A stretch of 25,537 bases of DNA from a virus: IMG/VR virus record IMGVR_UViG_3300030451_005631, positions 1 through 25,537 of that record, one strand, 5' to 3'. This document shows, one piece after another, positions 1,954 through 4,073 of the stretch; the first letter of the stretch is position 1, and each line of letters opens with the position of its first letter. The translations under genes were made by a program, and so were the position numbers. The notes beneath the pieces are model-generated. The model had not been told where the DNA came from, did not search any database, and saw only the letters and a program-made list of their open reading frames with translations.

Positions 1954-2303
1954 TAAGATTCAAATAGATCGACTTTCTTCTCAAGAGCTCTGAGATTGCG
2001 TCTGATCTTGTATTCTGATTTAATAGTAGATAACACATTACAAACTCTATTACCAAACCCTGAAACCTTTGATATAGATTTCTTTATTTGGGTCTTTGTG
2101 TCTGTGTCGTGTGAAGCATATGGAATCTTCTTACCATTATTGACAGAGTAGCCCCATACTTTGGCTATCTTACCTTTTTGGTATTTGCGGATTTCATAGT
2201 GATCTTTGACTTTGTCAGTCTTGATTGCTACGTCAGAGAGTAGCGCGCTCTTTATTTTTTCTTTGCCATCAATGACAAGAGTATATATTGTTTTGTTTTT
2301 CAT
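1953..2303 (-). CDS. Hypothetical basic protein
   Basis: This 116-residue protein starts MKNKTIYTLVIDGKEKIKS. The first 60 residues alternate hydrophobic and charged positions as in a small beta-rich domain (TIYTLVIDGKEK, HYEIRKYQKGKIAKVWGYSV). The second half is Lys/Arg-rich and probably helical (KTQIKKSISKVSGFGNRV, YKIRRNLRALEKKVDLF). Nucleic-acid binding would fit the charge, but no family was recognised. The ATG at 2303 has an AT-rich leader (TATACTATT-ATG) without a Shine-Dalgarno. The stop codon abuts the hairpin at 1901-1953. Confidence 0.7.
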   Translation of the reverse strand: MKNKTIYTLVIDGKEKIKSALLSDVAIKTDKVKDHYEIRKYQKGKIAKVWGYSVNNGKKIPYASHDTDTKTQIKKSISKVSGFGNRVCNVLSTIKSEYKIRRNLRALEKKVDLFES

Positions 2304-2589: not shown

Positions 2590-2650
2590 ATTCACAACTT
2601 ACTCACTTTCTAGTATATATTTATTTTTTCTTTTTTTCTTTGCACGAATA

Positions 2651-2680
2651 TGGGATGCCGAGCCGAAGCCCGACATCCCA
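2651..2680 (-). terminator. Stable hairpin with UUCG loop after the gene at 2687-2962
   Basis: On the - strand the 30 bases form TGGGATGTCGGGC-TTCG-GCTCGGCATCCCA. This is a 13-bp stem with only two wobble pairs, capped by the very stable C(UUCG)G tetraloop. It lies seven bases after the stop codon of the gene at 2687-2962. There is no U-tract after it in that direction, so whether it terminates, pauses or protects the RNA is open. A damaged mirror copy is at about 3462-3490. Confidence 0.7.
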
Positions 2681-2686
2681 AGTGCG

Positions 2687-2962
2687 CTACGACTCGTCGT
2701 GGCGTTCCTTGCGCTCAGGAGCCTTGAACTCGGTGACCACTATGAACTCCGACTTGCCGTCGTCCACCACGTCGAGGTGAACCTCTGCCCCTTTGGGGAT
2801 GGAGCAGTCGTGGTAGACTCGGACGTATTCGCGAGCCTCATCGCTTTGGATGAGTATGGTCGCTCCGAAGTCTCCTGACTCAAGAGGCTCCGCGAAAGAG
2901 CGGACGCATTTGCCGACTTTTTCGGTTATTGTTTGGGTGGTTGCTTTTGCTTGTTTAGGCAC
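2687..2962 (-). CDS. Small GC-rich accessory protein; intact copy of a duplicated gene
   Basis: This 91-residue protein starts with GTG at 2962, preceded by AAAGGA at good spacing, one of the few clear Shine-Dalgarno sites in the window. The residues from about 33 onward form four likely beta strands (GATILIQSD, REYVRVYHD, AEVHLDVVDD, SEFIVVTEFK), as in a small barrel. The N-terminus is Lys/Thr-rich and the C-terminus is charged (APERKERHDES). The G+C content is visibly higher than that of its leftward neighbours. With its own ribosome site and 3' hairpin it looks like an independently acquired 'moron' gene. A decayed inverted copy lies at 3177-3457. I do not recognise the family. Confidence 0.75.
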   Translation of the reverse strand: MPKQAKATTQTITEKVGKCVRSFAEPLESGDFGATILIQSDEAREYVRVYHDCSIPKGAEVHLDVVDDGKSEFIVVTEFKAPERKERHDES

Positions 2963-3042
2963 GTTTTTCCTTTCGTTAGGTTATGTTGAGACCAGATTGG
3001 TCACCCACATGGAATGCAGGTTCTGTCAAGGTGGAGATTTGT

Positions 3043-3075
3043 GTTTTGTGGATCTTAAGATTCACAAAACTTTTA
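3043..3075 (+). terminator. Near-perfect palindrome followed by TTTT, at the centre of the inverted duplication
   Basis: GTTTTGTGGATCT (3043-3055) pairs with AGATTCACAAAAC (3058-3070) with one wobble and a 2-base centre, and TTTTA follows on the + strand. It resembles an intrinsic terminator, although the stem is A/T-rich. It could also extrude as a cruciform, since it lies between the two arms. Confidence 0.55.
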
Positions 3076-3081
3076 TCACAA

Positions 3082-3098
3082 TGACAGCTCTGCTGTCA
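3082..3098. repeat. Short hairpin TGACAGC-TCT-GCTGTCA
   Basis: This is a perfect 7-bp stem with a 3-base loop, immediately to the right of the central palindrome at 3043-3070. No T-tract follows in either direction. It may be a protein-binding site or part of the folded centre of the inverted duplication. Confidence 0.6.
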
Positions 3099-3176
3099 CT
3101 ATCTACAAATTCTACCTTGACAGGTTCTGGTGACCAATCTGGGCTCAACATGTTCTAACGGAAGAAAAACCTCATA

Positions 3177-3457
3177 CTGCCTAAACATGCTAAAGTGACC
3201 GCCCAAACATTTATCCCAACCGAAAAAGTTGGCAAATGCGTTCGATCTTTTGTGGACTTGAGTCAGGTTTCCAGACTTCGGAGCGACCATGCTCGTCCAA
3301 AGCGATGTTGCATGACTCGCGAATTCGTCTGAGGCTGCCGCGACTGATTCAGCCCCAAAGGGTTTTACGAGGTCTCGACGTGGTGGGCGACGGCAAGCCT
3401 GATGCCTTTGGTCACCGAGTTCAAGGGTTCTGAGTGCCAGGAACGGTGCGTCAGCAC
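3177..3457 (+). pseudogene. Decayed inverted copy of the gene at 2687-2962
   Basis: Read on the + strand, this stretch follows the intact - strand gene from its start (CTGCCTAAACATGC against GTGCCTAAACAAGC) to its 3' hairpin. The start codon has become CTG, several short insertions and deletions shift the frame, and stops interrupt it. Fragments of the original protein remain in different frames: LDVVGDGKPDAF matches LDVVDDGKSEF, then the frame changes and the codons for VVTEFK continue out of frame. The Shine-Dalgarno region is partly kept (CTAACGGAAG against CTAACGAAAGG). No product is expected. A 228-codon open frame runs antisense to it and is discussed under rejected items. Confidence 0.85.
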
Positions 3458-3490
3458 CGCTTGGGTGTCGGGATTCGGCTCGGCATGCCA

Positions 3491-3820
3491 TATGGTCGTG
3501 GTCGTCTGTATCTTCCTTGTGTGCAAGACCTTGTGAAGTAGATTCTTTTGATAGGGTGCTTCTTTGAAGCACGACTCTTTTATCCTGTTGCTCATGCATC
3601 ATAACCGATTGCAACTCAATACTTTCCACCATGTGAGTCATGGCTGAAGAGGTCGTGGAATCCGTTGGTGCATGTGCAATAGGATATATGGGTCTTCGAC
3701 GGCAGTTTGTCCGACGATTCATGCAACCAGTAACCTGAATCTGGAACGATGACCCCCATTGGGGGAAACGGCGAGTCGACGACACATAGAGTCCCTACCA
3801 GCATACAAATTTTTGAGTTT
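3491..3820. other. Intergenic stretch without a convincing gene
   Basis: No frame here has a ribosome site or recognisable composition. On the - strand there are overlapping open frames (for example 3616-3837 and 3365-3595) rich in Ser, His, Cys and Arg, which look like chance or decayed coding sequence. Structural items are a hairpin GTGCTTC-TTT-GAAGCAC (3556-3572) and CCCCC-ATT-GGGGG around 3753-3765. The sequence has GC-rich patches like the inverted duplication next to it, so it may be debris of the same insertion. Confidence 0.5.
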
Positions 3821-4073
3821 TTGCTCACACTTCTCACAGTCAGCTTACACTTTTTGAATCAAGCGCGATGTTATAAGTAGTTACTATTATCAAGGACTTA
3901 TGTAATTGCTCACACTTCTCACAGTTTTTTAGCCTATAGTAAAATCAAAATAGTTTTCTCAGAAAAAAGTGTGAATTGTGTGAGCAGAATCGTAAACCAT
4001 TGATACTCTTATAATTTAATTAGCTCACACCCCCTATGTTTTACTGTGAGCCAGGTGTGAATAGTGTGAGCAA
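3821..4073. repeat. Five-copy TTGCTCACAC repeat cluster (iterons or operators)
   Basis: Two identical 20-mers, TTGCTCACACTTCTCACAGT, lie at 3821-3840 and 3906-3925. A further half-site, CAGCTTACAC, is at 3841-3850. Inverted relatives with core TGCTCACACAATTCACAC and TTGCTCACACTATTCACAC lie at 3967-3986 and 4054-4072. A palindromic pair GCTCACA...TGTGAGC is at 4022-4050. Each full site has two TCACA(C) words nine or ten bases apart, about one helical turn. The cluster sits between the leftward accessory genes and the rightward structural operon. It could be operators for a phage regulator, a replication origin, or the terminase recognition site. Confidence 0.85.
3987..4015 (+). promoter_or_regulatory. 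Candidate promoter of the structural operon
   Basis: A perfect TATAAT is at 4010-4015. The -35 position 17 bases upstream is GAATCG (3987-3992), a poor match, so an activator may be needed. The inverted repeat copy at 3967-3986 adjoins the -35 region, and copies at 4022-4050 and 4054-4072 cover the expected start and early transcript. This is the best promoter candidate for the genes from 4106 onward. Confidence 0.45.

What the first reader, a model, noticed from the sequence alone, without database searches (positions are those of the whole stretch)
2651..3490. Old inverted duplication of a GC-rich gene: intact left arm, decayed right arm
The gene at 2687-2962, its leader and its 3' UUCG hairpin are mirrored on the + strand, with exact blocks shared but with substitutions, indels and a lost start codon. 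The divergence argues against an amplification or assembly fold-back, which would give identical arms. Selection kept one copy and let the other decay, yet the mirrored leader (2984-3042 against 3105-3150) is better conserved than much of the coding part. So the inverted DNA structure itself, or the two outward leaders, may be functional.
Basis: seen in the sequence. Interest (0 to 1): 0.75.

Follow-up and report, generated by a model that had tools for sequence, protein, structure and literature searches.

The report
Phage gene with co-evolving mirror copy
In a family of marine phages a small gene always sits head-to-head with a non-coding mirror copy that changes in step with it, so one DNA strand can fold into a roughly 860-base hairpin, and in several members (this one included) the hairpin tip is a small hairpin also found in single-stranded-DNA phages and small plasmids, which points to a role in starting replication or transcription on single-stranded DNA.

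Summary
In detail: 2643-3500 is an imperfect palindrome (arms ~72% identical, E 1e-124), with an intact minus-strand gene in the left arm and a broken mirror copy in the right. It is not a decaying duplicate. A 97% identical contig assembled in a bacterial MAG and more than 35 related phage contigs have the same arrangement at the same place before the terminase genes; five groups share no nucleotide similarity in the arms. Every relative with the gene and enough sequence has the mirror arm. When the gene changes, the mirror arm changes with it (200 two-sided matched changes against 63 left-only). New mismatches favour G.T/G.U over A.C on the + strand, 133 to 8, so the + strand hairpin is what is kept (or the - strand one avoided). 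In this phage and several relatives the tip is a conserved hairpin (GTCAAGGTGGAGA...TACTACCTTGAC) that I also found, with unrelated stems, in inoviruses, microviruses, a rolling-circle plasmid, other small plasmids and other tailed phages. I read the locus as a giant single-strand hairpin element with an early OB-fold-like gene inside its stem, probably a single-strand initiation site. That function, and whether DNA or RNA folds, is inferred.

The parts
2643..3500 (+). whole imperfect palindrome (P1); predicted single hairpin of the + strand, -582 kcal/mol as RNA (- strand -510)
2643..3036 (+). left arm; its complement carries the gene
2687..2962 (-). 91-aa protein gene, predicted five-stranded OB-like fold; family of 72-91 aa in all P1 contigs, dN/dS 0.06-0.49
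2651..2678 (-). hairpin at the 3' end of the gene (intrinsic terminator with T run in several relatives)
3023..3040 (+). 5' half of the conserved tip hairpin (type I cap) CTGTCAAGGTGGAGATTT
3043..3070 (.). variable hairpin inside the cap
3107..3123 (+). 3' half of the cap AAATTCTACCTTGACAG (holds TTGACA, 3117-3122)
3124..3500 (+). right arm: non-coding mirror of leader, gene and 3' hairpin, with insertions and deletions shared by relatives
3501..3815 (+). adjacent conserved non-coding block (CCCCCATTGGGGGAAAC...GAGTCCCTACCAGC); also in relatives without the palindrome, so a separate element

Best explanation
SHOWN: the left-arm gene and its non-coding mirror form one conserved module in which the + strand can fold into a hairpin of about 860 nt; the mirror arm is kept complementary to the gene as the gene evolves; in this phage and several relatives the tip is a conserved hairpin cap that occurs, on other stems, in ssDNA phages and small plasmids. 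INFERRED: the module is a single-strand element. When the + strand is single-stranded (displaced or lagging template during replication), it folds; the cap marks a start site for host RNA polymerase or primase (like complementary-strand origins and Frpo/ssi single-strand promoters). Because the stem holds the whole unit from tip to terminator of the first early gene, an OB-fold-like protein, that gene is double-stranded, and possibly transcribable, even on single-stranded DNA.
For: Same architecture at about -2300..-1400 from terL in 34 contigs, plus L042, L062, L098, L099, L110, L111, L117, L118, though TerL is 78-98% identical and the arms fall into five nucleotide-unrelated groups. Gene and palindrome always together. 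Two-sided Watson-Crick changes 200, left-only 63. Matched-to-mismatched changes of the right arm A>G+C>T 133 against T>C+G>A 8, without mutational bias (polarised 101:86; flank 97:101) and without self-structure of the right arm alone; control palindrome P2 shows no G.T excess. + strand MFE lower than - strand in 15 of 16. Cap in 4 Zot-bearing inovirus contigs, 2 microviruses, a Rep_1 rolling-circle plasmid and other small plasmids (MOBV/RepL), with basal stems above shuffles in most. Caps with a -10-like box 16-17 nt after the TTGACA-like box in L120, L164, L171, L173, L176, L178. Early operon holds PolA, primase and helicase genes.
Against: No -10 box at the right distance in the window clade. 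No sequence match of the cap to the F plasmid ssb-upstream region or the M13 intergenic region. No known ssDNA phase for these tailed phages. Some relatives have a different tip (type II). Transversion mismatches are not depleted as A.C is, which fits selection against the - strand hairpin equally well. A few palindromes show no G.T bias (L058, L075, L077). The SSB-like fold match is not significant.
Confidence: 0.45

Rival explanations
1. RNA: a + strand transcript through both arms folds into a giant hairpin RNA (regulatory, antisense to the gene, or a structural ncRNA). The pairing constraint is on RNA.
For: G.U-type changes tolerated on +; + strand MFE lower; type II tips show stems with different sequence in different phages; neighbouring conserved non-coding block.
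Against: No Rfam match; no convincing + promoter found left of the palindrome; the + transcript would have to be antisense to the gene; the cap is shared with replicons several of which have an ssDNA phase; the neighbouring block occurs without the palindrome.
Confidence: 0.25
2. DNA-level concerted evolution only: an old palindrome is kept matched by gene conversion or template switching, with no function of the right arm.
For: Two-sided changes include nearly as many transversions as transitions (92:108) and cluster; left-only changes are rare; some palindromes look freshly homogenised (L077, L111).
Against: Does not explain retention in every gene carrier, the strand-asymmetric mismatches (133:8), or conserved tip modules on unrelated arms.
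Confidence: 0.17
3. Selection against pairing on the - strand: the early mRNA carries the mirror arm as antisense leader, and the right arm is pushed to break that pairing while conversion restores it.
For: The rarest changes are exactly those that would keep a G.U pair on the - strand, rarer than transversions.
Against: Gives no reason to keep the right arm at all; promoter of the gene unknown.
Confidence: 0.08
4. One reading: one-off duplication with a decaying copy and useful outward leaders.
For: Right arm non-coding; leader best conserved.
Against: Mirror tracks the gene across unrelated sequences; leader lost in L014.
Confidence: 0.03

Closest known systems
Frpo / ssi single-strand promoters of conjugative plasmids (PMC11541004; Masai and Arai 1997 as cited there)
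   Same: Imperfect hairpin on one strand; TTGACA-like box in the stem of the cap; lies next to a gene with an SSB-like predicted fold, as Frpo lies upstream of ssb.
   Different: No -10 at the right spacing in the window clade; no sequence similarity to the F ssb upstream region; here the whole gene lies inside the stem.
Complementary-strand / single-strand origins of inoviruses, microviruses and rolling-circle plasmids (PMC5714925)
   Same: The cap sits in intergenic regions of such replicons in gene-sense orientation.
   Different: The cap itself is not a described sso type that I could find; tailed phages are not known to need one.
GOLLD, ROOL and OLE large phage/bacterial RNAs (PMC12286853)
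   Same: Large structured non-coding element in phage genomes.
   Different: No Rfam hit; a long near-uniform duplex; one arm codes for protein on the other strand.
Hairpin RNA genes born by inverted duplication of a protein gene (known from plant microRNAs; own knowledge)
   Same: Inverted duplicate of a coding gene.
   Different: Here the mirror keeps following the gene over long evolution.

Membership tests
Frpo/ssi single-strand promoter | long hairpin of one strand | tested here: met
Frpo/ssi single-strand promoter | -35 in the duplex stem and -10 at 16-18 nt | tested here: not met
   TTGACA at 3117-3122 but no -10 in the window clade; present in other cap carriers
Frpo/ssi single-strand promoter | sequence similarity to F plasmid Frpo | tested here: not met
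Frpo/ssi single-strand promoter | adjacent SSB gene | tested here: inconclusive
   five-stranded OB-like model, SSBs top the PDB list but E 0.06
Frpo/ssi single-strand promoter | transcription from single-stranded template | not testable with these tools
   needs in vitro assay
Single-strand (complementary-strand) origin | fixed polarity in replicons with an ssDNA phase | tested here: inconclusive
   met for the cap elsewhere: Zot inoviruses, Phage_F microviruses, Rep_1 plasmid, motif on the gene-sense strand; no ssDNA phase shown for the window phage
Single-strand (complementary-strand) origin | initiates complementary-strand synthesis | not testable with these tools
   needs experiment
Known structured RNA family (Rfam) | match to a covariance model | tested here: not met
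Ordinary decayed gene duplicate | right arm diverges independently of the left | tested here: not met
Assembly fold-back | identical arms, absent from other assemblies | tested here: not met

The most novel reading that the evidence does not exclude
A self-complementary minigene: the phage carries the missing second strand of its first early gene in cis, so that the complete unit (tip, leader, OB-fold protein, terminator) becomes double-stranded and readable while the genome strand is single-stranded; the mirror arm co-evolves with the gene for that reason, and the tip is a mobile cap shared with ssDNA phages and rolling-circle plasmids.
Probability: 0.2. Interest if true: 0.92.

Novelty: categorically new. 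Interest (0 to 1): 0.78.

Why it matters
I know of no described phage element in which a protein gene and a non-coding mirror of it are kept in register as one giant hairpin while the sequence itself turns over. It makes a test case for whether strand-specific folding of phage DNA or RNA is under selection, and it exposes a small hairpin cap, apparently undescribed, shared by inoviruses, microviruses, small plasmids and tailed phages, whose function (single-strand initiation is my guess) is directly testable in laboratory M13 and plasmid systems.

Tried and rejected
Assembly artefact (rejected: L098). Known RNA family (Rfam negative on window, relatives, L077, plasmids). Pure composition or mutation bias as cause of the G.T excess (rejected by polarised changes, and by the composition of flanks and silent sites). 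Local structure of the right arm alone. The 3' block as part of the same RNA (occurs without palindrome). Bidirectional terminator at the centre of L014 (A run, not T run, after the stem). Sigma-70 promoters in the loop of the window clade (no -10). Homology of the cap to F Frpo and M13 origins. A wider cap scan with a short pattern gave mostly coding chance hits; the gapped pattern was clean apart from about two likely chance hits (L170, L172). PHROG, Pfam and PDB sequence searches for the OB-like protein found nothing significant; one family member used as query had no match in isolate phages. Literature searches, in an open-access library only, found no description of the motif or of such a palindrome.

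Full report
What was checked. The window is a 25,537-base IMG/VR virus record with a tailed-phage structural block on the + strand (terminase, portal) and early genes on the - strand to the left. Between them lies the reported inverted repeat. It is real: it spans 2643-3500 about a centre near 3073, 72% identical with gaps, E 1e-124, in blocks of 29-47 nt at 83-94%. The leader (91%) and the 3' hairpin (94%) are better kept than the coding part (85%, many indels), and substitutions between arms ignore codon position. The gene 2687-2962 is open and its family is under purifying selection between relatives (dN/dS 0.06-0.49); the right arm has no intact copy.

Not an artefact. A contig in a MAG labelled Sneathiella is 97% identical to the window over this stretch and has the same 858-nt palindrome. 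It also hints at an alphaproteobacterial host, though binning of a phage contig is weak evidence.

It is a conserved module. Relatives were fetched with TerL. At about 2300 to 1400 bases before terL, 34 contigs have a 600-900 bp palindrome with arms 65-79% alike, although their arms fall into five groups with no long nucleotide similarity to one another, while TerL stays 78-98% identical. The left arm carries a - strand gene of one protein family (72-91 aa), ending 40-45 nt inside the outer end in most. A profile search showed a strict link: contigs with the gene and enough sequence have the palindrome (two that my filter missed, L042 and L062, have it too), and contigs with full upstream sequence but no gene show no such palindrome. 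The conserved non-coding block to the right (window 3501-3815) occurs with and without the palindrome and is a separate element.

The mirror arm follows the gene. Between related contigs both arms change together: 200 two-sided Watson-Crick changes, 63 left-only and 366 right-only. Window and L098, with 7 differences in 858 bases, already include one such double change (2855/3291, TG to GC) and three changes between a G.T and a Watson-Crick pair. Right-arm indels shared between groups (for example the missing GCCT near 3257) survive beside sites that changed in step. Whether this is gene conversion or compensatory selection I cannot fully separate; transversion doubles (92 of 200) and clustering favour conversion for part of it.

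Which strand folds. Right-arm changes from matched to mismatched are A>G 69 and C>T 64, which leave G.T (G.U) pairs on the + strand, against T>C 6 and G>A 2. Polarised changes show no mutation bias in the right arm (101:86) or the flank (97:101). The right arm alone has no excess structure on +, so the constraint is on pairing with the left arm. A second palindrome close by (P2, about 3820-4070) shows 194 G.T against 283 A.C. Seventeen of 20 clusters have G.T above A.C (sign test); the clusters are related, so this is not a strict probability. Caveat: transversion mismatches are common, so the data say 'pairing on + is kept or pairing on - is avoided'. G.T wobbles are tolerated in DNA hairpins as well as in RNA, so this does not decide between them.

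The tip. Aligning the loops showed two interchangeable tip modules on unrelated arms. Type I, in the window (3023-3040 with 3107-3123), is a 12-bp stem with one G.T wobble and a small internal loop: CTGTCAAGGTGG-AGATTT...AAAT-(A/T)-CTACCTTGACAG, holding a variable inner hairpin. Type II is a branched structure with stems of different sequence in different phages. Pattern scans found type I outside this clade: in four contigs with Zot (inoviruses; L120 also has the gene II replication protein), in two with the microvirus capsid protein, in a Rep_1 rolling-circle plasmid of Moraxella bovis, in MOBV/RepL and other small plasmids, and in other tailed phages, several at the same kind of divergent site before late genes. 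In 24 of 31 distinct examples the cap continues into a basal stem reached by at most 2 of 100 shuffles of the flanks. In six of them a -10-like box lies 16-17 nt after the TTGACA-like box, as in single-strand promoters; the window clade lacks it. The cap does not match the F plasmid ssb upstream region or the M13 intergenic region, and I found no description of it.

The protein. AlphaFold gives a five-stranded barrel-like model (pLDDT 76); SSB proteins head the PDB list but without significance. No significant Pfam, PHROG or PDB sequence match. It is the first gene of the leftward early block, which in relatives also holds DNA polymerase A, an AEP-type primase and helicases.

Interpretation. 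I commit to a single-strand hairpin element: the + strand folds, the cap is the recognised part, and the stem holds the first early gene. Shown: conserved palindrome, gene linkage, co-evolution, strand asymmetry, cap sharing. Inferred: that DNA rather than RNA folds, that the cap starts synthesis or transcription, and that the gene benefits from being double-stranded in the hairpin. The most serious rival is a giant + strand hairpin RNA.

Noticed in passing
window 3820-4070: A second, AT-rich palindromic repeat region (GCTCACAC / GTGTGAGC words) before terS; in relatives the word changes (TAGACAC, GTCACAC) but arms stay matched, as expected of a fast-evolving protein-binding site such as an operator, origin or packaging site.
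   Followed up: partly
window 3501-3830: Conserved non-coding block with ATGGGGGAAA...ACAAGGAGTCCCTACCTGCGNATCCAATTTTCAATTTT consensus in about 46 related contigs, 1060-1180 bases before terL, independent of the palindrome; function unknown, hairpins of variable sequence inside.
   Followed up: partly
window 2279-2290, 2306-2317, 2611-2622 (+): Motif TAGTATATATTG repeats next to starts of - strand early genes (10 near matches, 3.1 expected); possible early promoter or leader signal.
   Followed up: partly
L120, L164, L171, L173, L175, L182, L123-L126: The cap hairpin in inoviruses, microviruses and small plasmids appears to be an undescribed single-strand element worth its own study.
   Followed up: partly
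L045 275-459, L055 216-400, L077 585-769: Type II tips carry extra long inserted hairpins of unrelated sequence between GGAGGAG and GACCCTAAGCAC, as if an apical insertion site.
   Followed up: no
L077, left of 277: Tandem AGTATATCTATAGGTCTGTTGA repeats just left of the palindrome.
   Followed up: no
L098: Near-identical phage contig binned in a Sneathiella MAG: a host lead for this uncultured phage group.
   Followed up: partly
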